In this document: in pieces, positions 10,182-46,246 of the stretch
Position numbering within the stretch: the stretch's first letter is position 1
How the letters are laid out: each line of letters starts with the position of its first letter
IMG/VR virus record: IMGVR_UViG_3300030060_004561
Span: 1-50,734 of that record
Origin: a virus
Reading direction: 5' to 3' (one strand)
DNA length: 50,734 nt
The notes under the pieces: generated by a model
The model's database searches: none
Seen by the model: the letters and a program-made list of their open reading frames with translations, nothing else
What the model was told of the DNA's origin: nothing
Translations under genes and position numbers: made by a program

Positions 10182-13100
10182 ATGAGAAAGATCAATCCAA
10201 CTTCGTCTGCTGATCTAGGCAGGCAGCTGCCCGATAGTTTTAGTGGCAAACTTTCCGCTCTCGCTCAAATGGGAATCGGTGTTCGCAGAGCACCCAACTG
10301 GAAAGAAGAAGAGGAGGAGAAGAAAGAGGAGGAGGAGAAATTAAGGGAGGCTTCATGGTGGGATTACGTAGAGGTGCCTGCTAAACAGTTAGCGAGCGGC
10401 ACGGCTCAAATCTTTACGGAGTCTACTGCGTCTGCTGGCACCCTTACAGCTTGGGCTAAGGGGCAAGTAGGTTTAAGCGGCGACCCCGAAGATAACTTTC
10501 TCTATCGAGCTGGCACCAAGGGAACAGAGATGGCAGAGATTGATTATCTGCCAAACAATTTCAGAGGTGGCGGCACCGGGTTCTTCCTGTCTGACGCACC
10601 CAAAGGTGTGGGTTCAGCTCTAGGTTTCGTTGGTAGTGGCGGTGTGTATGGAGCGGTTGGTAAAGGTGTCGGCAAGGTTGCTGCTAAACAGGTAGCCAAA
10701 AACCTATCGAAGCCATCCAACTTTAGGAGGGCTATCAAGGAGCAGGACGAAGTCCTTAAAGGAAGTAAAGTCAAGCAGCCTACTGGCCCATCCTCTATGC
10801 CCAAGTCTTGGTACAAGAATGAGGCAAAAGATATTGTCGGGAAGAGAGCTAGAAAGACACGTGCTGACGCGATGGAAAGGCTACCAAAGCTGGGCCAGTC
10901 TACGGGACAGGTTGCTGGTGTTGGTACGACTGGTGTGGCTGTTTCAGCAATGGAAGGTTTCAGAGATGCAGTCTCTGAACTCAGAGCTGAAGCCATAAGG
11001 CAAGGCAAAGACCCAGACAGCATAGATTACGGCGTGGCTTTCGATGCGTACTTCGCTGCCGCACCCGCTGGCTTGCTTGAGCTGCTCGGTGTTGAGCTGC
11101 CTCTATTAAGAGCCATGCGTGGTGCCTCGACAGTGGAAGACATAGCAAAGCACGGCGGTGACAACTTGGCTAGAAAGTCCCTTACCACCAAGATAGCTAT
11201 TGCCCTGCACAAGAACCTAGATAACGTAACCAAAGGAAGATTCTCTGCTGGCTTGGCAGCATTTAGTAAGAGGGCTAACGGAAGTAATTGGGTGAACAAC
11301 TCTAGGTTGGTGTTGGGGAACATAGCTCAAGAGGCAGGCCAAGAAGCAGCACAGGGTGCTTGGCTTAACATGGTGGCTGCAAACATTGCTGGCTACGATA
11401 AGAACCGAGACTTGTTTGATGGCCTCGTGCACCAAGGCGGTGTCGGCGGTGTCGTTGGTGGTGTGTTCGGCTTAGTTACTGTTGCCATCCGCCGCCGCGC
11501 AGCAAACATAGATCGCCTTAAGAACTTAGAGGACAGAGCATCGCAGTTGCGGGAGCGTGGGCAAGAGAAGCTGGCAGATGACGTTCAGTTAGAGGCTAAC
11601 AAACTGAGAGCGCAGATCATTGCTGAAAATGTAAGCATAGCTGAGGTAGACAATCAGATAGAAGCCAACGATACGACTCCTGCTGAGGTCGGGGAAGTTG
11701 TGTTCGAGGACAACATGGGCCTCGACACGCTGGCCACTGAGGCTACCCCAGCTGCTGAGACTGCTGCTACCCCAGCTGCTGAGACTGAGGTTGCTCCCGT
11801 TGCTGAGACTGAGGTTGCTCCCGCTGCTGAGACTGAGCTTGCTCCCGTTGCTGAGACTGCTGCCACACCAGCCGCTGAGGGTGAGGACAACTTCATTTCT
11901 CGTGTAAACAAAGTGCTTGCGGCGAGATTCGATGAATCTCTGACGCCAGAGCAGGAAGCAAATATGCGTCAGGCTTTTCGAGACGGAGGAGACGCCCTCG
12001 CCACAGCTGAGAAACAATTAAAACTTGAGGAGGAGTGGAATGCAGTAGACTCAGATAAATTAAAAGCAGATAACGCTGTTGTAACCGAGGCCAAGGAGCA
12101 GGGCGTTCCTGTTAGTGAGGTAATCCCAACCAAGGCGGGCAACCTCACAACCGCTAAAGTTAAAGAGGCAACTAAGCGGTGGAATAAAAAGAAAGCAGCT
12201 GACCAACAATTTACTGAGGAGACGACAGAGACTCAGTCAGATGAAGACATTGTTAAAGCAGTGGAGTCTAAAGGCAAACGACTTAAGGTTGTTAAGAGGA
12301 AAGGTAAGCCACTTGACGATCCTAAGACAGAGAAAATATATCAAGTTGTCGCCTTAGATAAGGACGGCAATGAGATAGCCAAGCTGTCGCCGCCTATGAA
12401 AAAGAAGGCAGCTGCAGCGTTTATGTTTAGGCAGGTTCAGCCACGGTTCCCCGGACTAAAGGCCAGCGTTGCTGGAGATCAAGCCAGAGAACTTGGTCTT
12501 GAAGATTCGTATGCTGGAGTGGTGCAGGCAGAGGAGGTGACAGACCCCGAAGGTATTGAGGCATTAGACCAAGACTTTAGAGATAGATTCTACGAAAAGG
12601 GAAAAGCACCAGAGACAACGGCTCGCACCTCGGAGCTGCAGCAAGAAGAGGCAGCAGACCGGAGGAATGAGGAACAGCTGGAAGATGATTTGTCTGCTGC
12701 AGCTGAGGCAGAGGCAGCGGCAGCAGAGGAAGAGCCTGCACCTGCTGCGCCCAAGAGACAGCCCAAGCCAAGCGTTGTTGAGAAAGCTAAAGCAACTGTC
12801 GCTGCTCGTAAAGACGAGGACGATTACATTGCTCAGATGAACAAGGAGCTTGAGGAGATGGGGGATCAACCCATGTCGCCTGAGCAGGAAGCGGAAAACC
12901 GCAAGGAATACCGTGAAGGCTTAAAGGAAGAAGCAGCGGAGCCTGCTCCAGAGGAAGCGGAAACAACAGCTGAGACTGTCGAGGGAGCGGAGCCTGACTA
13001 TATTATTTCAGATGATCAGATGGCTAAGGACATCGCCTCTCTTAAAAGGCTTGGTGAAACAATGGGGGCAGGGCCGGGGCAGGCGGGGTACGAACTGTCT

Positions 13101-16100
13101 GTCATAGGGGGAAGGCTCGCCTTGGCGTACATAGAGCGTGGAGCTTATACGTTTAAGCAATTTGCGAAGACGATGGTCGATCAATTTGGAGACTGGATTA
13201 AGCCACACCTTGTCGGCTGGTTCTTTAATGCGAGTAGGAGTCCCTTGATGCAGGACATCCCTGTTGAGCAGCTGACCGAGAAGGAGATGAACGACGAGCT
13301 TGAGGAGATGGAACTGGAGGACAGCAAGCCAGCCGAACCCAAGCCACCATCGTCAGCTAGTGCTAAGTTAGCTCAAGAGAAACGTAAGAAAGCAGCCGTA
13401 GCAAAGATAACTGGCAAGAACGTAGGCGTCCCGAAACCGTCCGTGCCCGTAGAGGATGGTGACGTAGTGATCCAGCCGCAAGGGCCGTGGCAAAACAAGG
13501 GGCTGGCGCAGGCGTGGGCTAACAAGGCTGCAGACAAAAACCCCGATCACACCTTTGAGGTTATACAAACTGGCCACAAAGAATACAGAGTGCAGTCGTC
13601 ACCTCAAGTTACTGACGACCAGCTCGAAGGCGAGGACAATAAGGAAGGGCCAGATATTGTGCGCCCCTTAATTGACCAGCCCCAACCTCAATTATCCGGG
13701 TTCAGCCCACAGGAGTCAAAGTCCGAGCGGGAGTTACTTGAGGAGAAAGCTCAATCTCTTGGCGAACGCATCGCAAGCATTAGCAAAGAGCTGAACACGG
13801 CGAAGACCTCGGAAACAAAAACTGTTTTTCTTTATAACTTAAACTCTCTTAAGAAAGAGTTGGAGGAAGTTAACAGAGCCATACCGGATGCCAGCACTAA
13901 CAGACAAGTGACGTGGTTTCCTAACCCTAAAGGTTCTGACACGATTGTTAGAAGAGCTGGCGGGCCTGTAATAAGAGAGGCAGAGATGCTGGAGATTGAC
14001 ACTGAGGCTGAAGCTGAACTTAAGGCAGAGAGAGAGAAGGCACTTGGTAAGTTAAGGACTAAGAGGCGGGAGCTTAAGAAACTGCAAGGTCTGAATGAGA
14101 AGCAACTACGCGACCCGAAAGTTCAAGCACAGATTCAAGGTCTTTTAGATGTTATAGCTAACCTAGAAGGAGATTTAAGGCGTGCAAATAATGCGCTTCA
14201 AGGCAGGCCGATTGCTGGGCAACAGGTCGGAGATGCGGAGTTTGAAACTCAGCGAGATGACGTAGAGATATTTAGAACAGAGCAAGATTTAATTGCCGAG
14301 CCTGAGCTTGAGCCCGAAGCATTAGCCAAGAAGGTCAATGCAACTGTTAGTCGTAACAGCCAAGTCCCTGCTGGCGTCAGGGAAAACGCTGACAATTTCT
14401 TCAACGATGAAGCATACGTAGCTGGGCTGCTGGATAAAGATGGTGACGTGTTTGTCCCGCCGAAAGAGGGGGAGCGTCACCCGGACGCTGTTGCCATTTC
14501 ATCTAACGGTATCACTCAAGTAATCAAGGACACGCTCATTGAGCTGATTCAAAACACCGGGCCGTTCAGAGGCATGATTGTTCCTAACATCCGCTTTGAT
14601 ACGAGCAAGGAAGGTAAGCCCATGTTTACCACTCCGAATGACGGAGATAACTCAATCAAGATTGATCTCAGGAAACTTGCTGAAGTTCTTAACGCGCCGA
14701 CTCTAGTCACTGTTGATGGTGTTGAGACAGGCGGCGATCCATTTACTATTAGGCAGATGCTTAGTCACGAGCTTAACCACGTTCTCATATGGCGTGCAAT
14801 ACGGCACGCTAAGATAACTGAAGGCAAGGACGGCAACCCACTTTCTCACGAAGGCATAGCGAAAAGATTTAGAGCAATTAACAAATTGAATCTTCAGATT
14901 CTCGAAGCTCAGATGGCTAACCGTGCTGCGAGAGGGTTGCCTCCTGAGAACGAAGCCTTTCGCTTATGGAAGCGACACGTTGCGAATCACTTCAGCCCAA
15001 ATGAAGTGTCACAACTGGTATGGGACGGCAGCGTTCAGCAGCAAGTTGAGGTTAAGGATAAGAATAACGTAATTGTTAGGGACGAGAACGGTAACCCTGT
15101 AATGAAAGACTTGCCTTACAAGGGGGCGATTCTGAACGCAGGAAAAATTAGCCAATATCAAGCGGGCGTTGAGTGGCTTGTGTTCTTGATGGATCGGGCT
15201 GCTGAGGGTGATAAGAATGTACTAAATCAATTAGACAGCATAAAGGATAGCACTAGGACATTCTTAGAATCTATATCTAAGCTGGGCAAGGGGGATTTTG
15301 TTGGGGGAGCTGTTCCGTACGCTGTGCAGGCAATGATAAATAATGCCACTACAATTACAGGTGGAGTTAACGTATTCTCACAAAGAATAAACAACCTAAA
15401 CAGGGACGATAGTAGGTGGGTGGAGGAAAACATTGTTCCTCTATACGAGAAGATAGATTTTGATCATGGCCGCAGGAAGGATTACAGAGAGATGGCTGCC
15501 TCTGACGAGGCAAGTGGTCAAGCCGACATAATTACCCGCTTGTGGGATGAGATGGTAACAGAGGCTCACGCCTTTAAGTCTATAGTTGAGTCGCTAAAAC
15601 GTGACAAGCAAGGTGACGCAACGATTAAAGTCAACGGCAAGGGGGTTAAGATAAACTGGGCTGTTGATTGGCATCAACCCAAAGGAGCGTACGTACTTAA
15701 AGTTTCGAGCGAGAGAGGAAAAGCATGGAATAAAACTTTTGAGGGAATATCCAAAGTGACTGGCAACTCTGTCGCCGACTTGAGAGCAAACAATCCGCAC
15801 CTCCCGAAGAACGAGAGGATAAGAGAGGGCTCTTACGTGCTGCTTCATTCTGTTGACAAGGGGCAGAAGGGGTGGGTCTTTGATACCGAAACAAGAGAGC
15901 AGAAATGGTACAGGAATGCTGTTGATTACATGAAGGGCAGGAAAGGGAAAGGTTCTTCAGTTAGCAGCCGTGGCAGAGCGCAACAAAAGGATGCGTCTGA
16001 GGCATCAATTAACCTCGATTTAATTATGCACCTGCTCTCCAATGAGGCAGACTATGCTAACATCCAGACAGAGCTAGACCAATCAAGCTCAGTGTCCAAG

Positions 16101-19100
16101 GTTGAGCCGTTCAACCCTGTACTTCCAGCCTCAAATGAAGTGGATGTCCAGCAGCCACGAGCTGGGTATGATCCGACCAAGACAAGCGAGAGCCTAGACA
16201 GGGCAGCTGAGAGGGAGATGATAGTTAGTTTCTTGACCGACAACTTCGCGCCAATCGAAGCACTCGGTCTACGCATAGAACCTCAAGACATGGCGCACGG
16301 CATAGTGATGATGGTGCACGATGCTGCGGCAGGTGGAGGGGATATTCAGAAAGCTGCCACTCAGATTAAAGCGTTTCATAATAAGGCACTATCCGATCAG
16401 CAGGCACTAGATGACGAGGTTGCTGCGCTTGAGTTGCAGAAAGATAACTTACTTAACAACAGGCCCAAAGGATGGACAGTGTCTTTGCCGCAGGTAAGAG
16501 ACGCTCTTAAGAAAGCAAGGGACAAGGCTACACGGCACAAAAATAAATACTTCCCGTCAGGGAAACTATCAAAAATTGAGCAACCTATCTCTGTCGAGGT
16601 GTTCAGAGGCAGCATACTGCCTGCGTTTAGGGACGCCATGCTTCAGTCAGGCATGACCTTTGAGCAGCTTTCCGACAGGATAGAAAAAGAGAAGCAGACT
16701 ATTGTTGAAGTAGATGTTGAAGAGGGCAACGTAGAGTTTGGATTCCCTGTTCCGCCTCCAGACTCTGATGGGTCTGGCCCGTTGTTAGATTACATTAAAG
16801 AGCTGGGCGTACCGGAAGCTGCCGCCACATCTAAGGGCAAGGTTCCCGGCGGAACCAAGTACAAGAAGGTGCAGGTCTCAGACTTCAATGAGATCATGCA
16901 GTTAGTAGAGGACTACATCCTAACTGGTAAGACCCCCGTAAATGAGGGAGGGGTAGCCACACTTGACGGTGTCATAGAGAGAACTAAAGAACTGCTGAAT
17001 AATGCTAACGACAGCGGCTTCGCTAAGATAGACGAAGCACTTAACATCCCGGTTTACGATGCCGCTGTGATTAAGGACGCTGCGATGAGTGCGGTTAAGA
17101 AGTCGCAGGGATTACTGAGTGCTGAACTCTCACAAAACGAGAGGCTGCGCTTGGTTGCATTTGATTCTTGGATAAGCCAGCAGTCAGGACAGGCAGCATC
17201 TCAGTCAGCTCAAGCACTGCGAATGAGGCAAGAGCTGATCAAGAAAGCAGGCCACTACATGGCAAGGCAGGGCTACGAGAATGCTCTGCGTGATCGTCAT
17301 TACAGAGACTTTGGTGCGACCGTAACGCTGGACTGGGTCAACCTAGTGAAGGGACTTATAACTGAGGCTGGTGCTCGTGCATCTAACAAGTCTATTGCAG
17401 AACACACTAAGAAGGGCGGCATCAACCCAGCTCGTCAGATTCTTGAGGGAGGATCGTTCGCATTTCTTGGAAGAGAGGGTGAAAGCACCGCTGAGATGCT
17501 GAACCAGATAGAGGATTGGATACAACGAGCGAACCAAAAAATATCTGCCTCTCATACTAACGGGCCTGTCACAGCCAAGGACTGGAAGCAGGCGTTCCTC
17601 TCTCACCCGCCAGCAGGCAGAGAGGCTGACGCTTTTAACAGGGCGCAATGGGATAGGATTGCTTCGGTCAGCCTAAACATATGGAGGGCGCAACGTCTTG
17701 CAGAATTTAGCAGCTTACTTAAAGAGAACGCTGGCAGCTTAACTGGTGGTGAGCTTACAGCTAAGGCTTTGGTGGAGAGCGCGGAGAAGTTACTCGCAAC
17801 TGCTGATGCAGGGGTATTCCAAGAGGGGAACAACGGTGCGGACACAATGATCAACGTGGGTGGAAAGAAAGTTCACCTGCCTGTTACCGCAGCGTGGGAT
17901 GCGGTTGCTCCAGCTGCGTACAACTCTAACAATGGATTCTTTGGGGACGAAGTTAGCGTGAAGTTAATGGAGTTGGAGAAAGAAATCGAAGACAAGAAAC
18001 TTGATGGTGTCAGAGCTGCAGCCAAGCGAGAGGAGATGGTCAGTCTGATAATGGCGAACACACCTATAAATCCTGCTCACTTGATGAGAGATGTATGGTT
18101 TGCTCACGCCTTGTCAGGCTTGCGTACGTTTGTAGACATCGGAACTGGCGGTGTAATCTTCGGAGCGACAAGCACCCTGCTGCTGTCAGCAGAGAACGCA
18201 TTGGCAGGCACAGGTAAATCAAGAGGCGACTCACTTAACATGATCACGTCCTTTGTCAAAGGATTGTGGGAGGGTATGGATGGCTTTGCTTACATCGTGA
18301 AGACAGGTGACACAAGCCTGCTGCCTGACGCTAACGAGCGGCTCATGGATATGCTCAAAACCCAAGAGGATTTTTACGGTGGTCTTGAGGTAGAGAAGTT
18401 TGCTAAGAGCGATAAGTTTGGCAGCAGTTACGCTAACATTCTTAAGTTTGTGCGGAGAATGGTGCTGGGCCTAGACTACATAGGCGCAACAGCAGGTCGC
18501 AAAGCTATGATGGTGTACGGTGCATCGCAAAGGCTGGCTAACGCTGAGTCCCTTGCTGAACTGGAGACCAACGCTGCCAAGAAGGCTGAACTTAAGCAAC
18601 AGGTTGCAAAATTAAAGAAAGCGTATGCTGCTTCGCAGAATCTAAGTAACGAAGCAGATAAGAAGAGAGCTTTGGATAAAGCTGTTGAAGAAATTTACGG
18701 CAAGAACCTGACCGAGGTAGCGCACAACTCCCACCTTAATGAACCCTTAGTCAAGGCTAGGGCTAGGGAAATCATGGAGTACGACATATCTACGCACGCT
18801 GACAATCTTACATTAGATTCCGGTGAGCTGGGCCGTGTGTTCGCACTCAATGCAGACCCGATTGGATTAGGTGGGTTGATGCACAGGATGATGCAGGGAT
18901 CAAAGCTGCTTAAGTACCCATTGGGACTAGCGTTCTCTCGCGCAGCCATGAACATGGTGTCTAACGCCACAAACTTTACGCCAATCATCAGTCTGATTAA
19001 CTACGCTAGGACAGTACCAACAGAGAGGAGTGCTCTTACTCGGTTCATCAGACGGACACCACAGTTTAAGGACTTCGACATTGCTCCAAGCTCTAAGAGA

Positions 19101-20177
19101 TACGGCGATAACAAGAACGCACAAGGACTTGAGGTCATGCCCCCAGAGAGGGCAGCTCTTATTAGGGCGCAGGCAATATCATCAACCGCTATAGGGTTGG
19201 CAGTGTGGGCGTTCCTGTTACAGCAGGACGATGACGATGAGGTGCAAGAGGAAGAGAAGTGGGATGTCATTGGTTCTTTAAGAGGGCTGTCCTACCAGAG
19301 GAGACAGCAGCTGTACTCTCAAGGGGTTAAGCCTCTGTCTATTAAGATAGGCTCCCACTACGTCAGCTACAAGAACACCCCGATGGCTGCTTGGTTTGCT
19401 GGCATGGGTGCATTAAGAGACGGGCTCAAGTGGAGCGACAACAAGGATGAGTACACTGCCGAAGATAAATTCTTAGACCTGACTATGGGTGGGTGGGCGT
19501 ACACTATGGACTTAGGCCCGACATCTACCACGTTCAGTTTGCTTCGGGCGTTAGAGGGTCAGGACTCTGGGCAGGTAGCCAAGAAGGTGCTGTCTCACAT
19601 AACTCAATCGAGTGTTGGCACACTGATGCCAGTGACTGGGGCTAACCTAATCAAAGAGATAGACTCAATGGCTAACCCGACCTATTACAAACCGGGCAAG
19701 GATCAAGTTGCTTCTTGGTTCCTTAGCCAGCAGGCATTCTTTAGAGTAAGCGGCAGGCCATTGGTTAACGCACTAGGTGAAGAGGTTGAGATAGCTCGCA
19801 CGCCTTGGGACAGGTGGTACGGAGGCACGGCTAATCCTGACCAGTTACTGAAGGAGCACAACCACCCAGCAGGCAGGCGTGAGTGGGTTGCCATTGCTAA
19901 GTGGGCTAGGAACGGAGTGTTCCTGCCCGGACAGAGCCTCGGCGGTAGGGATATAGTGGGGAGTGACCTTAAGAAAAGACCGATGACTCAAGAGGAAATC
20001 TATGAGTACAACAAGCAGTCAGGTCAGAAGTTGAAGGAACTCTTAGTGATGAACTTGGATTGGTTAGAAAAAACCACCCCCGAAACTGCACAGAGGTGGC
20101 TTGATAAGACATCACGTAGAATCCGTGATGGTGTTGCTAAGAGGATTGCTTACGAGGCTCGTCAGGCCCAAAGATAG
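10182..20177 (+). CDS. Giant 3,331-aa internal virion / ejection polyprotein
   Basis: This gene takes up one fifth of the genome. Visible parts: a Glu/Lys-rich N-terminus (about 35-50); Gly-rich segments at about 140-165 and 415-430 (GGVGGVVGGVFGLVTVA) that could enter membranes; a tandem ETEVAPVA-type repeat at about 520-568; two related linkers ending in TPEQEA and SPEQEA; a zinc-protease motif HELNH at about 1529; a LysM-like module at about 1837-1893 (TFEGISKVTGNSVADLRANN); a hydrophobic region at about 2650-2671; and a hydrophobic strand at about 3000 followed by an acidic run. This fits the gp16-like ejection protein of large podoviruses, which opens cell wall and membrane. No lytic transglycosylase motif was found by eye. 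The start has no clear ribosome site. The 3' end overlaps the opposing gene at 20137 by 41 bp. Confidence 0.85.
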   Translation: MRKINPTSSADLGRQLPDSFSGKLSALAQMGIGVRRAPNWKEEEEEKKEEEEKLREASWWDYVEVPAKQLASGTAQIFTESTASAGTLTAWAKGQVGLSGDPEDNFLYRAGTKGTEMAEIDYLPNNFRGGGTGFFLSDAPKGVGSALGFVGSGGVYGAVGKGVGKVAAKQVAKNLSKPSNFRRAIKEQDEVLKGSKVKQPTGPSSMPKSWYKNEAKDIVGKRARKTRADAMERLPKLGQSTGQVAGVGTTGVAVSAMEGFRDAVSELRAEAIRQGKDPDSIDYGVAFDAYFAAAPAGLLELLGVELPLLRAMRGASTVEDIAKHGGDNLARKSLTTKIAIALHKNLDNVTKGRFSAGLAAFSKRANGSNWVNNSRLVLGNIAQEAGQEAAQGAWLNMVAANIAGYDKNRDLFDGLVHQGGVGGVVGGVFGLVTVAIRRRAANIDRLKNLEDRASQLRERGQEKLADDVQLEANKLRAQIIAENVSIAEVDNQIEANDTTPAEVGEVVFEDNMGLDTLATEATPAAETAATPAAETEVAPVAETEVAPAAETELAPVAETAATPAAEGEDNFISRVNKVLAARFDESLTPEQEANMRQAFRDGGDALATAEKQLKLEEEWNAVDSDKLKADNAVVTEAKEQGVPVSEVIPTKAGNLTTAKVKEATKRWNKKKAADQQFTEETTETQSDEDIVKAVESKGKRLKVVKRKGKPLDDPKTEKIYQVVALDKDGNEIAKLSPPMKKKAAAAFMFRQVQPRFPGLKASVAGDQARELGLEDSYAGVVQAEEVTDPEGIEALDQDFRDRFYEKGKAPETTARTSELQQEEAADRRNEEQLEDDLSAAAEAEAAAAEEEPAPAAPKRQPKPSVVEKAKATVAARKDEDDYIAQMNKELEEMGDQPMSPEQEAENRKEYREGLKEEAAEPAPEEAETTAETVEGAEPDYIISDDQMAKDIASLKRLGETMGAGPGQAGYELSVIGGRLALAYIERGAYTFKQFAKTMVDQFGDWIKPHLVGWFFNASRSPLMQDIPVEQLTEKEMNDELEEMELEDSKPAEPKPPSSASAKLAQEKRKKAAVAKITGKNVGVPKPSVPVEDGDVVIQPQGPWQNKGLAQAWANKAADKNPDHTFEVIQTGHKEYRVQSSPQVTDDQLEGEDNKEGPDIVRPLIDQPQPQLSGFSPQESKSERELLEEKAQSLGERIASISKELNTAKTSETKTVFLYNLNSLKKELEEVNRAIPDASTNRQVTWFPNPKGSDTIVRRAGGPVIREAEMLEIDTEAEAELKAEREKALGKLRTKRRELKKLQGLNEKQLRDPKVQAQIQGLLDVIANLEGDLRRANNALQGRPIAGQQVGDAEFETQRDDVEIFRTEQDLIAEPELEPEALAKKVNATVSRNSQVPAGVRENADNFFNDEAYVAGLLDKDGDVFVPPKEGERHPDAVAISSNGITQVIKDTLIELIQNTGPFRGMIVPNIRFDTSKEGKPMFTTPNDGDNSIKIDLRKLAEVLNAPTLVTVDGVETGGDPFTIRQMLSHELNHVLIWRAIRHAKITEGKDGNPLSHEGIAKRFRAINKLNLQILEAQMANRAARGLPPENEAFRLWKRHVANHFSPNEVSQLVWDGSVQQQVEVKDKNNVIVRDENGNPVMKDLPYKGAILNAGKISQYQAGVEWLVFLMDRAAEGDKNVLNQLDSIKDSTRTFLESISKLGKGDFVGGAVPYAVQAMINNATTITGGVNVFSQRINNLNRDDSRWVEENIVPLYEKIDFDHGRRKDYREMAASDEASGQADIITRLWDEMVTEAHAFKSIVESLKRDKQGDATIKVNGKGVKINWAVDWHQPKGAYVLKVSSERGKAWNKTFEGISKVTGNSVADLRANNPHLPKNERIREGSYVLLHSVDKGQKGWVFDTETREQKWYRNAVDYMKGRKGKGSSVSSRGRAQQKDASEASINLDLIMHLLSNEADYANIQTELDQSSSVSKVEPFNPVLPASNEVDVQQPRAGYDPTKTSESLDRAAEREMIVSFLTDNFAPIEALGLRIEPQDMAHGIVMMVHDAAAGGGDIQKAATQIKAFHNKALSDQQALDDEVAALELQKDNLLNNRPKGWTVSLPQVRDALKKARDKATRHKNKYFPSGKLSKIEQPISVEVFRGSILPAFRDAMLQSGMTFEQLSDRIEKEKQTIVEVDVEEGNVEFGFPVPPPDSDGSGPLLDYIKELGVPEAAATSKGKVPGGTKYKKVQVSDFNEIMQLVEDYILTGKTPVNEGGVATLDGVIERTKELLNNANDSGFAKIDEALNIPVYDAAVIKDAAMSAVKKSQGLLSAELSQNERLRLVAFDSWISQQSGQAASQSAQALRMRQELIKKAGHYMARQGYENALRDRHYRDFGATVTLDWVNLVKGLITEAGARASNKSIAEHTKKGGINPARQILEGGSFAFLGREGESTAEMLNQIEDWIQRANQKISASHTNGPVTAKDWKQAFLSHPPAGREADAFNRAQWDRIASVSLNIWRAQRLAEFSSLLKENAGSLTGGELTAKALVESAEKLLATADAGVFQEGNNGADTMINVGGKKVHLPVTAAWDAVAPAAYNSNNGFFGDEVSVKLMELEKEIEDKKLDGVRAAAKREEMVSLIMANTPINPAHLMRDVWFAHALSGLRTFVDIGTGGVIFGATSTLLLSAENALAGTGKSRGDSLNMITSFVKGLWEGMDGFAYIVKTGDTSLLPDANERLMDMLKTQEDFYGGLEVEKFAKSDKFGSSYANILKFVRRMVLGLDYIGATAGRKAMMVYGASQRLANAESLAELETNAAKKAELKQQVAKLKKAYAASQNLSNEADKKRALDKAVEEIYGKNLTEVAHNSHLNEPLVKARAREIMEYDISTHADNLTLDSGELGRVFALNADPIGLGGLMHRMMQGSKLLKYPLGLAFSRAAMNMVSNATNFTPIISLINYARTVPTERSALTRFIRRTPQFKDFDIAPSSKRYGDNKNAQGLEVMPPERAALIRAQAISSTAIGLAVWAFLLQQDDDDEVQEEEKWDVIGSLRGLSYQRRQQLYSQGVKPLSIKIGSHYVSYKNTPMAAWFAGMGALRDGLKWSDNKDEYTAEDKFLDLTMGGWAYTMDLGPTSTTFSLLRALEGQDSGQVAKKVLSHITQSSVGTLMPVTGANLIKEIDSMANPTYYKPGKDQVASWFLSQQAFFRVSGRPLVNALGEEVEIARTPWDRWYGGTANPDQLLKEHNHPAGRREWVAIAKWARNGVFLPGQSLGGRDIVGSDLKKRPMTQEEIYEYNKQSGQKLKELLVMNLDWLEKTTPETAQRWLDKTSRRIRDGVAKRIAYEARQAQR

Positions 20178-22996: not shown

Positions 22997-23018
22997 TCTT
23001 AAGTCGTGTGACTTAAGA
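22997..23018. repeat. Palindromic element 2 (loop GTGT)
   Basis: Arms TCTTAAGTC and GACTTAAGA (9 bp) around GTGT. It lies 28 nt upstream of the start at 22969 and directly borders the pentamer tract. Confidence 0.9.
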
Positions 23019-23021
23019 GTT

Positions 23022-23697
23022 GCCGTGACTGCCACGACATGACCCACCGGGCCTTGTCTCTCCAAACCTTGCCTTGCCATGACTGCCTTGCCTCGTCTCG
23101 ACTGGTCTCACCCTGCGATGCCATGACTGCCTCGCCTTGTCCAGCCTGTCCTAACCTAGACGTACCAGACCTTGCCCCGACTGCCTTGTCACGACTTGCC
23201 TGACCACGCCTTGTCTTGCCGTGTCTCGTCCCGACTGGACTGCCCTGCCGTGTCTCTCCATTCCTCACCATGCCCTGCCCCGCCATGACTGGCTTGCCAT
23301 GTCTGGCCATGTCCTGACTTACCCTGCCCCGTCCCGACTGCCATGCCACGTCTGGCCTTGCCATGATCTGCCCCGTCTCGCCAAGACTTACCGGGCCTTG
23401 ACTGCCACGCCCGACCCTGCCTTGTCCCGCCTTGCCTTGCCGTGCCAAGACTGCCTCACCTAGTCGCGCCTCGCCTTGTCCCGCACCGACTTGCCGTACC
23501 AAGACTGCCCTGACTGGACGTGTCAGGCCACGTCTAGCCGTGCCTTGCCTAGCCTTGACTGCCATGCCCTGTCGCGTCTCGCCTTGCCACTACCTGCCTA
23601 GCCAAGCCTTGCCCAGCCTTGACTGCCTCGCCTCGTCGCTCCTCGCCTTGCCAGACCTTGCCTTGCCCTGACTGCCCAGCCACGCGAAGCCGAGTTA
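23022..23697. repeat. Hierarchical pentamer tract (GNCNN units with GACT punctuation)
   Basis: About 676 bp made almost wholly of 5-mers of form GNCNN on the + strand (GCCTT, GCCTC, GTCTC, GCCAT, GCCGT). The register slips by one base at each GACTGCC. These marks are at 23027, 23081, 23125, 23179, 23238, 23287 (GACTGGC), 23336, 23400, 23449, 23503, 23557, 23621 and 23670. The 12 intervals are 54, 44, 54, 59, 49, 49, 64, 49, 54, 54, 64 and 49, all 5n-1. Because 5-mers are read over three frames, several frames are open by accident and give Ala-Arg-Gln-Gly-rich peptides. I call no gene inside. It separates the stop at 23708 from palindrome 2. Confidence 0.92.
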
Positions 23698-23707
23698 GGA
23701 ATGGGGT

Positions 23708-24247
23708 CTAGTCTTCAACCTCGACACCGAGGTCTAGCTTGACCCTGTCAATGGCAGCGAATACCGCTGCGAATTCGGTGTAGTTATCGTACTTCCTTCG
23801 GAACGTGTCCATCTCGAACAGGATACGCTCAAGCACGAGAGCACGAGTGTCTTCGTCTTTCATCGCACGTTCAGTAGGTACATACACGTTGCGTTCCACT
23901 TCCTCACCCTCATCGTTGATGACTTCTTGTCGGATGCTGATGAACGCACGGACGTTACCGTTCTCATCTGCTCCCTCTTCAACGACAGGTCTGATCTCGA
24001 TAGACTGAATGAGGTTGCGAGCCTGCTTCAATCTGTGCTGTTGTGCAGCAGCCTCATCATCCCACTCGAAGTGGTGATGCAATGGATTGTCAGGGTCTTC
24101 AGCCCTAGCCAATACATCTTCGGGTAACACGTACCCGTCATTGGTGTTGACGATGTCAGTCAACTCATTGTGTGCTGCGATTGCATCTGCATCATCACTT
24201 AGCTTGTGTGATCCAGCCTTCTTAACTACTTCATACTTAATGCTCAT
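23708..24247 (-). CDS. Conserved phage/plasmid hypothetical protein, 179 aa
   Basis: Acidic protein with a conserved-looking core: NPLHHHFEWDDEAAAQQHRL (residues 53-72), then KQARNLIQSIEI and a beta segment VRAFISIRQEV. This is a known-looking family that accompanies replication-region genes in phages and plasmids: a variable N-terminus, EWDD-containing helix, then strands. It ends with helices (RRKYDNYTEFAAVFAAIDRV). No catalytic motif. ATG 24247 follows GAAAGGAAAA. Confidence 0.72.
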   Translation of the reverse strand: MSIKYEVVKKAGSHKLSDDADAIAAHNELTDIVNTNDGYVLPEDVLARAEDPDNPLHHHFEWDDEAAAQQHRLKQARNLIQSIEIRPVVEEGADENGNVRAFISIRQEVINDEGEEVERNVYVPTERAMKDEDTRALVLERILFEMDTFRRKYDNYTEFAAVFAAIDRVKLDLGVEVED

Positions 24248-24270
24248 TTGTTTTCCTTTCGTTTGTTTGT

Positions 24271-24292
24271 TCTTAAGTCACTCGACTTTAGA
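24271..24292. repeat. Palindromic element 3 (loop ACTC), containing a stop codon
   Basis: Arms TCTTAAGTC and GACTTTAGA around ACTC, with one T-T mismatch. On the - strand the mismatch makes TAA, which is the stop codon of the gene at 24288-25031. Confidence 0.85.
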
Positions 24293-25031
24293 TTTCTACT
24301 TTGAATGTACCCCAGCTGTTACCCTGTCTTTGCGGTCGGTTCTCACCGATGCCAACTGTCCTACCTGCATCGTTAACAGCATTGACTATCTCCTCTGCTG
24401 TCACTTGGTTGGTGTTGTACTCAACAGTAAAGGGTATCTTCCATGTGTTGAACCCAGCGCGGTACCGAATGTCTGCAGTACCCATGCCCACACGGACATC
24501 ATCTTCCCGCAGACAGGCACCGTACTTGTGCGCCTCTTCCAGTTGCTCAAGCATCTCTTCCTCATCCCAGCCCATCTCTTGAGCCAAGAGTTTCTCTGTA
24601 TAGTTTAGCCCATTAACTGGAGGCGCAATGATAGGCACGAGATCGTACTTACCTTCCCGATCTTCATGCCCGTAGATGTGCATGAATCCTTTGGCATCCT
24701 GCATAGTCTTGCCATCAAAGAACTTGAACGCACGCTGCGTTGCTTGCTTGATAGCGACAGCAGGGAATCCATAAGGAGTGCCATCCACTGTGTCCTCGAA
24801 CCTGTACAGTGTGTCGTACATCAGCTCCACTGGTTGCTTCTCTTCCGGTTTGCGCTTGGCTTTGCCGAGCTGCTTGTCCCGCATTTGCTTGCGGCTTTTC
24901 TCTGAGAACTTGTGAACGACCAGACGATTGAGACCAACGATAGTTATATCAACCTCTTTGTATGTCTGAATCTTTAGGTTCACACGTTCGGGTACTTGTT
25001 TCTTGTCTGCTTTCTTAGTTGTAGTAGGCAT
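24288..25031 (-). CDS. Phage protein with possible RAMP-like features, 247 aa
   Basis: N-terminus ITIVGLNRLVVHKFSEKSRK, basic stretch KAKRKPEEKQ, FPAVAIKQATQRAFK, then DVRVGMGTADIRYRAGFNTW and IPFTVEYNTNQVTAEEIVNA. It ends with VGIGENRPQRQ then GTFKVE. The order strand, helix, basic loop, Gly-rich return with GIGxxRPxxxGxxGTF resembles RAMP/Cas7-like folds. I have seen similar phage proteins, but I cannot show the fold from sequence. Its stop codon lies inside palindrome 3. The leader holds a ribosome site GAAAAGGAA at 25031. Confidence 0.65.
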   Translation of the reverse strand: MPTTTKKADKKQVPERVNLKIQTYKEVDITIVGLNRLVVHKFSEKSRKQMRDKQLGKAKRKPEEKQPVELMYDTLYRFEDTVDGTPYGFPAVAIKQATQRAFKFFDGKTMQDAKGFMHIYGHEDREGKYDLVPIIAPPVNGLNYTEKLLAQEMGWDEEEMLEQLEEAHKYGACLREDDVRVGMGTADIRYRAGFNTWKIPFTVEYNTNQVTAEEIVNAVNDAGRTVGIGENRPQRQGNSWGTFKVEI

Positions 25032-45070: not shown

Positions 45071-46246
45071 ATGTCTAAAGTCTTAGGAAACTCTAACGTA
45101 GATGGTGCTAGTTTCGAGGGGGTAGTGTCCCAAGTCTCAAGCACTCAAATTCTCCAGTCTCAACCCAGCTGGGTTTTTGGTACCCCAACTGAGATTGCCG
45201 CTGGCGGTTCTCCCACTGTTTCTGTAACTGGAGATTACCCGAATCAAACAATCACATTTGGATTGGTTGCGGGAGCCACTGGAGCGCAAGGAATACAGGG
45301 AGAGACCGGAGCCGCTGGTGCCGCTGGTGCCGATGGTTCAGATGGTGCCGATGGTTCAGATGGTTCAGATGGTTCAGATGGTTCAGATGGTTCAGATGGA
45401 GCCGATGGTTCAGATGGTGCAGATGCGGCCACTCCCAACTGGACTTTACAGACTTCAACTGTATCGGCTGGCGGCACACCTACGGTCAGCGCAACCGGAA
45501 CATATCCAAATCAAACAATTACGTTTGGCCTTGTTACTGGAAGCGCGGGAGCTGATGGAGCTGATGGAGCTGATGGAGCTGATGGCAGTAATGGCACGAA
45601 CGGAACAAATGGTAGTGACGGCACAGGATTCACTGGGGGAAGTTACAACTCATCCAACGGTATAGTAACTTTTACATCTGATGACGGGCTAGGGTTTACA
45701 ACGGGTGATTTAAGGGGAGCAGACGGGGCAGATGGAGCAGATGGCAGTAACGGCACGAACGGCAGTAACGGCACGAACGGCAGTAACGGCACGAACGGTA
45801 GTGACGGCACAGGATTTACCGGAGGAAGTTACAACTCTTCCAACGGCATAGTAACTTTTACATCTGATGACGGGCTAGGGTTTACAACGGGTGATTTAAG
45901 AGGAGCAGACGGAGCTGACGGTGCTGACGGTGCTGACGGTGCTGACTCAACCGTAGCTGGCCCAGCGGGAGCTGACGGTGCTGACGGTGCTGACGGTGCT
46001 GACGGATTGGGAGTTCCATCAGGAGGCAGCACTAATCAAGTGCTGGCAAAAGCCAGCAACACAGACAACGACACAGCTTGGGTAGATAACACGGGTGGCC
46101 ACGCCATCAAGGACGAGGGAGGCTCTGCCTTAACAACTAGAGCTAATATGACCTTTATAGGTGAGTTAGTTGCTGCTACAGACAACAGCTCAACAACATC
46201 AACTGATATTACAATGGACGCCAAGACAGCTTGGCTTTACGGATAA
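45071..46246 (+). CDS. Collagen-like fibre protein
   Basis: 391 residues. Gly-X-Y triplets (GADGSDGSDGSDG, GSNGTNGSNGT) at about 80-115, 155-185, 218-240 and 280-316 would form collagen triple helices. Between them a conserved beta module, SYNSSNGIVTFTSDDGLGFT, occurs twice. A PTVSVTGDYPNQTITFGLV module is repeated near residues 49 and 139. The C-terminus (LTTRANMTFIGELVAATDNS) looks like a trimerisation tip. Probably a trimeric tail fibre. A GGTGG is upstream of ATG 45071. Confidence 0.85.
   Translation: MSKVLGNSNVDGASFEGVVSQVSSTQILQSQPSWVFGTPTEIAAGGSPTVSVTGDYPNQTITFGLVAGATGAQGIQGETGAAGAAGADGSDGADGSDGSDGSDGSDGSDGADGSDGADAATPNWTLQTSTVSAGGTPTVSATGTYPNQTITFGLVTGSAGADGADGADGADGSNGTNGTNGSDGTGFTGGSYNSSNGIVTFTSDDGLGFTTGDLRGADGADGADGSNGTNGSNGTNGSNGTNGSDGTGFTGGSYNSSNGIVTFTSDDGLGFTTGDLRGADGADGADGADGADSTVAGPAGADGADGADGADGLGVPSGGSTNQVLAKASNTDNDTAWVDNTGGHAIKDEGGSALTTRANMTFIGELVAATDNSSTTSTDITMDAKTAWLYG

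What the first reader, a model, noticed from the sequence alone, without database searches (positions are those of the whole stretch)
23022..23697. 676-bp tract of GNCNN pentamers with a precisely kept slip at every GACTGSC mark
The tract is low in complexity, but not simple: 5-mers GNCNN (mainly GCCTT, GCCTC, GTCTC, GCCAT) run in register, and one 4-mer, GACT, appears at each mark. Thirteen marks give twelve intervals, all 5n-1 nt (44, 49, 54, 59 or 64). Random insertion or deletion would spoil this, so either a copying mechanism makes 5-nt steps with one punctuation per unit, or selection keeps the 5-nt spacing, for example for binding along a helical array. Units differ in sequence but not in register. 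It lies in a spacer of the leftward operon beside palindrome 2.
Basis: seen in the sequence. Interest (0 to 1): 0.92.

Follow-up and report, generated by a model that had tools for sequence, protein, structure and literature searches.

The report
Phage VIPR guide-RNA array
The odd five-letter tract is a set of twelve guide RNAs lying next to the gene for their protein partner, a CRISPR-like targeting system called VIPR that phages appear to use against rival phages and that was described in a 2026 preprint, so this is a new example of a remarkable but already reported system.

Summary
23022-23697 parses as pentamers with 13 four-base marks, and all 12 mark intervals are 5n-1. Read on the coding strand the tract is GGC/GTC/GAC + NN pentamers, and each mark is GSCAGTC.

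The two genes just upstream in the same leftward operon explain it. 24288-25031 encodes a RAMP-fold protein matching the solved SUSP1 Vipr protein (PDB 36pp; profile E=3.6e-13, single sequence E=7e-5); its model matches CRISPR Cas7/Csm3. 23708-24247 encodes its co-occurring partner. This is a VIPR system, in which NN dinucleotides guide DNA recognition with a one-base skip (PMC13142463).

Of 112 related viral loci, 103 carry such a tract, on the vipr sense strand 147:3. Mark spacing is 5n-1 in 445 of 540 cases. Window NN pairs look like codon positions 1-2, so the skipped base falls at wobble. A guide from one relative matches another phage's major-head gene 22/22, every skip at wobble, the match ending at the marks.

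The marks are therefore guide boundaries, not copying or DNA-helix marks. No target of this phage's own guides was found. Verdict: new member of a known kind, with a punctuated array unlike SUSP1.

The parts
24288..25031 (-). vipr gene (gene A, 247 aa, phrog_4652): RAMP-fold RNA-binding protein, Vipr homologue
   Evidence: PDB 36pp_D SUSP1 Vipr: profile E=3.6e-13, single sequence E=7e-5; AlphaFold model pLDDT 91 with top Foldseek hits all CRISPR Csm/Cas7-type proteins, E down to 2.8e-6; G-rich loop GIGENRP
23708..24247 (-). vap (Vipr-accessory) candidate (gene B, 179 aa, phrog_15946, 'FEWDD' protein)
   Evidence: found next to vipr in 101 of 112 loci; model pLDDT 93 without a significant PDB match, best weak hit TFIIE E=0.13
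23022..23697 (-). vrRNA (guide) array: 12 complete guide units bounded by 13 marks, transcribed strand minus
23670..23676 (-). first boundary mark (GGCAGTC on the coding strand); 12 more at 23621, 23557, 23503, 23449, 23400, 23336, 23287 (GCCAGTC), 23238, 23179, 23125, 23081, 23027 (plus-strand starts of GACTGSC)
   Evidence: consensus GGCAGGC/GGCAGTC in 101 loci
23628..23676 (-). guide 1, decoded target AGnAAnAAnCTnAAnGAnGCnGAnGA
23564..23627 (-). guide 2, AAnTGnAAnTTnTAnAGnGTnAAnGAnGCnAGnAT
23510..23563 (-). guide 3, AAnTAnAAnACnTAnGTnCTnACnCAnAG
23456..23509 (-). guide 4, TTnACnAAnGGnGGnAAnGAnGCnTAnGA
23407..23455 (-). guide 5, TTnACnAAnAAnGGnAAnAGnCGnGT
23343..23406 (-). guide 6, AAnCCnAAnTTnGAnGGnAGnATnAAnCAnGTnAT
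23294..23342 (-). guide 7, GGnGGnAGnAAnAGnATnCAnATnAA
23245..23293 (-). guide 8, ATnGGnAGnATnGAnATnGAnACnAG
23186..23244 (-). guide 9, CAnGGnGAnACnAAnAAnGTnCAnAAnGTnAA
23132..23185 (-). guide 10, GGnAAnCTnACnTAnTAnCAnTGnAAnGA
23088..23131 (-). guide 11, ATnATnAGnGAnCAnGAnGAnAA
23034..23087 (-). guide 12, ATnAAnAAnTTnGAnAAnCCnGGnATnGT

Best explanation
23022-25031 is a phage VIPR system: vipr (24288-25031), a vap-like partner (23708-24247) and an array of 12 vrRNA guides (23034-23676), all on the leftward strand. Vipr subunits are expected to line up on the RNA, one per pentamer, holding the G-N-C triplet and presenting the NN pair. The NN pairs of a unit together read a double-stranded DNA target in the pattern NNxNNxNN, with the skipped base falling mostly on codon wobble positions of rival phage genes, whose expression is then repressed. 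The four-base marks (GSCA before GTC) drop one base of spacer, so a filament cannot cross them in register, and they delimit the guides. Shown here: register, marks, gene identities, fold, genomic association, codon-phase signature, and a perfect decoded target for a guide of a relative. Shown in the preprint for SUSP1: RNP formation, the one-base skip, repression. Inferred: expression, processing at the marks and repression by this particular phage.
For: Vipr homology to PDB 36pp. RAMP fold. The vipr/vap pair is the only gene homology found between the window and mycobacteriophage Quico, and Quico has the same kind of tract beside that pair. Tracts in 103 of 112 loci, 152 of 159 within 1.5 kb of vipr/vap, 147 sense against 3 antisense, 0 in shuffled DNA. 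Mark spacing mod 5: 445 at 4, against 53, 32, 6 and 4 in the other classes. Window NN pairs fit codon positions 1-2 on the sense strand in 1996 of 2000 bootstraps; in 62 other loci the two wobble-skipping phases win 54 times. Guide of L122 matches the L089 major head protein gene 22/22 with one-base skips, every skip at wobble, ending at the marks. Guide of L071 matches the vipr genes of L067 and L114 at 20/22. The preprint describes the same system.
Against: No target of the 12 window guides was found: five viral and two genome pattern scans gave only hits that chance explains. The triplets are looser (G-G/T/A-C) than the preprint's GGY; 40% of middle bases are not G. No structured 3' tail follows each unit, unlike SUSP1. 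RNA production was not tested. In the pooled scan, skip 1 exceeds the other skips only modestly at 2-3 mismatches.
Confidence: 0.95

Rival explanations
1. The locus is VIPR, but the mark-to-mark unit is not the guide: mature vrRNAs overlap or span marks (the 'staggered arrays with overlapping vrRNAs' mentioned in the preprint).
For: The preprint names such arrays. NN pairs next to marks are purine-biased, hinting at extra constraints there.
Against: The 22/22 match of the L122 guide fills exactly one mark-to-mark unit and stops on both sides. A one-base phase drop at each mark breaks a pentamer filament.
Confidence: 0.25
2. A decayed or inactive VIPR array in this phage.
For: Looser triplets than GGY; no target found.
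Against: vipr and vap are open and fold confidently; all 12 spacings are kept; NN pairs keep a coding signature; other loci have equally loose triplets.
Confidence: 0.08
3. A cis-acting DNA element (iterons, operator, centromere) bound by the neighbouring proteins along the double helix.
For: Repetitive, non-coding, beside a palindrome and possible DNA-binding genes.
Against: A one-base loss per about 50 bp worsens helical phasing; GGY is on the vipr sense strand in 147 of 150 cases; NN pairs are codon-like; protein A is a RAMP.
Confidence: 0.02
4. Plain microsatellite expansion with slippage.
For: Low complexity, period 5.
Against: Units differ in sequence but keep register and marks across about 100 loci; slippage gives 5n, not 5n-1, spacings.
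Confidence: 0.01

Closest known systems
VIPR (Viral Interference Programmable Repeat) systems, e.g. Escherichia phage SUSP1 (PMC13142463; PDB 36pp)
   Same: Small RAMP-fold Vipr gene, adjacent vap-like gene, pentamer guide RNA with a conserved triplet and variable NN, phage-encoded, 8-12 NN per guide.
   Different: SUSP1 has separate vrRNAs each with a structured 3' tail and no GGCAGGC marks between them; here 12 guides run head to tail, separated only by four-base marks, and the triplet is G-N-C rather than GGY.
VIPR arrays of Cluster F mycobacteriophages (Quico, Donkeykong, Gorge) and Gordonia phages (UmaThurman, ODay)
   Same: Same vipr/vap families (about 30-37% identity) and same GGCA-marked pentamer arrays.
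   Different: There the array lies before or between vipr and vap, and triplets are strict GGC or GGY; in the window it follows vap.
Class 1 CRISPR-Cas (Cas7/Csm3 backbone)
   Same: Vipr model resembles Csm3-type RAMPs; programmable RNA-guided logic with boundary elements between guides.
   Different: No CRISPR repeats or other cas genes noted beside the array; the guide is read in gapped dinucleotides.
TRAP (trp RNA-binding attenuation protein) sites
   Same: About 11 triplets with 2-nt spacers along RNA (recalled, not tested).
   Different: Triplets are GNC not NAG, the neighbouring protein is a RAMP, and many units follow one another.

Membership tests
VIPR | Vipr protein: RAMP homologue with G-rich loop | tested here: met
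   PDB 36pp_D E=3.6e-13 and 7e-5; Csm3-like fold; glycine-rich C-terminal motif
VIPR | vrRNA of alternating GGY (or related consensus) and NN, 9-16 repeats | tested here: met
   12 units with 8-12 NN each; consensus G[G>T,A][C>T]. Met in the relaxed form; strict GGY is not met at every triplet
VIPR | Adjacent vap gene | tested here: met
   Gene B adjoins vipr in the window and co-occurs in 101 of 112 loci; its assignment to one of the six published vap families was not testable
VIPR | One-base-skip target code, skip at wobble | tested here: inconclusive
   Supported statistically for the window and by a 22/22 match for a relative; no target found for the window's guides
VIPR | vrRNA expressed and bound by Vipr | not testable with these tools
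   needs RNA sequencing and pull-down
VIPR type II (SUSP1-like) | Each vrRNA ends in a conserved structured 3' tail | tested here: not met
   Units abut directly at four-base marks; SUSP1 tails seen in L130
CRISPR-Cas class 1 | Identical repeats with unrelated spacers plus cas genes | tested here: not met
   Array is pentamers with 4-base marks; no PADLOC match for the two genes; Foldseek resemblance is at fold level only

The most novel reading that the evidence does not exclude
The GGCAGKY-punctuated continuous array is a distinct VIPR array type: a four-base phase-drop mark, shared by about 100 phage loci, that sets guide boundaries and blocks Vipr filaments from running on. In this phage it is combined with a relaxed G-N-C triplet code. 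The preprint's main text does not describe such a mark; its supplement could not be read.
Probability: 0.35. Interest if true: 0.65.

Novelty: new member of a known kind. Interest (0 to 1): 0.55.

Why it matters
VIPR is a newly reported, possibly pre-CRISPR, RNA-guided DNA-recognition system used between phages. This locus adds a 12-guide example with a relaxed triplet. The comparison set gives independent sequence-only support for the wobble-skip code on both strands and shows how guides are delimited in continuous arrays. It also explains unannotated or mis-called repeat regions in well-studied mycobacteriophages and Gordonia phages.

Tried and rejected
Coding repeat: rejected, since the marks break frame and no family matched ORF 22999-23565. 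DNA helical phasing: a one-base loss per unit is the wrong direction. TRAP-like regulator: considered from the 11-triplet spacing, dropped when gene A proved to be a RAMP. Rfam: no match. Targets of the window's guides: pattern scans in viral contigs and genomes; the five hits (L125-L129) match the 18 searched bases but extend no better than chance (3 of 10 further bases) and no contig was credibly hit by two guides, so none is claimed. Self-targeting: best window matches are no better than shuffled guides. Host: TerL and DnaB relatives are too distant to name one. Vap fold: no significant PDB match. RNA folding z-score -4.4 is not interpreted, since the period-5 make-up alone may cause it.

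Full report
Observation. The tract at 23022-23697 is as described. It parses into 124 pentamers and 13 GACT tetramers, with all 12 mark-to-mark distances 5n-1. On the minus strand, which is the coding strand of the leftward operon, each unit reads GSCA-GTC-NN followed by G[G/T/A]C-NN repeats. Over 119 pentamers the first base is G in 116, the third is C in 99 and T in 14, the middle is G in 72, and the last two vary. The first triplet of every unit is GTC. There is only one such tract in the window.

Relatives. A blastn search of the surroundings hit only Cluster F mycobacteriophages, and the hits fall on a tract there. Those tracts have the same architecture with different letters: GCCNN pentamers broken by GCCT, which is GGCNN broken by GGCA on the coding strand. 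Comparing all ORFs of the window with Quico gave one shared gene pair, window 24288-25031 and 23708-24247, and in Quico this pair lies beside its tract. Gordonia phages UmaThurman and ODay carry the pair with a GGYNN tract between them.

Scale. IMG/VR scans with alignments of the two proteins gave 112 loci. Of these, 103 hold a period-5 tract; 152 of 159 tracts lie within 1.5 kb of the genes; GGY is on the gene's sense strand in 147 of 150; shuffled loci give none. Marks GGCAG[GT][CT] are spaced 5n-1 in 445 of 540 cases.

Identity. A literature search found a 2026 preprint on VIPR systems, a phage-encoded RAMP protein with guide RNAs of alternating GGY/NN (PMC13142463, read). A profile of gene A, built from 45 sequences including the window's, matches PDB 36pp_D, 'SUSP1 Vipr protein', at E=3.6e-13; the window protein alone matches it at E=7e-5. 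Its AlphaFold model (pLDDT 91) has CRISPR Csm/Cas7-type proteins as its top matches. Gene B is a confident but unmatched fold and is best read as the accessory (vap) protein; that assignment rests on co-occurrence.

The code. The preprint reports that NN pairs read DNA with one skipped base, usually the wobble base, on either strand. Three tests here agree. (1) The NN pairs of the window fit codon positions 1-2 of coding-sense DNA better than any other phase in 1996 of 2000 bootstraps. Of 62 other loci, 35 fit the sense wobble-skip phase and 19 the antisense one, leaving 8 for the other four phases. (2) A guide of L122 matches L089 at 22 of 22 bases with one-base skips (expected about 4e-5 such matches). 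The site lies in the major head protein gene of that phage, every skipped base is a third codon position, and the match ends at the two marks. (3) A guide of L071 matches the vipr genes of two other phages at 20 of 22, in line with the preprint's statement that some guides target other VIPR systems.

What the marks are. In SUSP1 the vrRNAs are separate transcripts with structured tails and no such mark between them. In the window and most relatives, guides run head to tail with a GGCA tetramer between them. Because the tetramer shortens the step by one base, a filament of five-base subunits cannot pass it in register, and the one perfect target match stops there. I infer that the marks delimit guides. 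The preprint mentions staggered arrays with overlapping vrRNAs without detail in its main text, so overlap remains a rival.

Limits. No target of the window's own guides was found in five viral and two genome scans. The hits obtained extend no better than chance and are not claimed. The host is unknown. Expression, processing and repression were not tested. The supplement of the preprint could not be read, so whether the mark and the relaxed triplet are already described is open.

Verdict. A real and striking feature, correctly spotted, but a member of a system already reported: a VIPR guide array with its vipr gene and a vap candidate.

Noticed in passing
21749, 23001, 24275, 25096, 26659, 27088, 27248, 27489, 27525, 28184: Ten copies of a palindrome close to TTAAGTCNNNNGACTTAA, several of them between genes of the leftward operon; candidate operator or regulatory stem-loop.
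   Followed up: partly
L007 2938-3324, L005 3029-3187, L009 2647-2970: Annotated 'hypothetical proteins' (Donkeykong gp48, ByChance gp39, UmaThurman gp40) lie on the guide arrays and are probably not genes.
   Followed up: partly
L006 1769-2986: In mycobacteriophage Gorge vipr and vap are annotated as one fused ORF (gp54).
   Followed up: no
24288-25031: The window's Vipr has an extra helical insertion of about 35 residues (near residues 139-173) that the three aligned actinophage relatives lack.
   Followed up: no
10182-20177: A 3331-aa ORF fills a fifth of the phage genome; its function was not examined.
   Followed up: no
45311-46006: Collagen-like 9/18-bp repeats inside the tail-fibre gene 45071-46246.
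   Followed up: no
L122 4489-4548: In the guide with the perfect target several triplets are degenerate (TGT, TAT, TGC) while all NN pairs match, suggesting that NN is under tighter selection than the triplet.
   Followed up: partly
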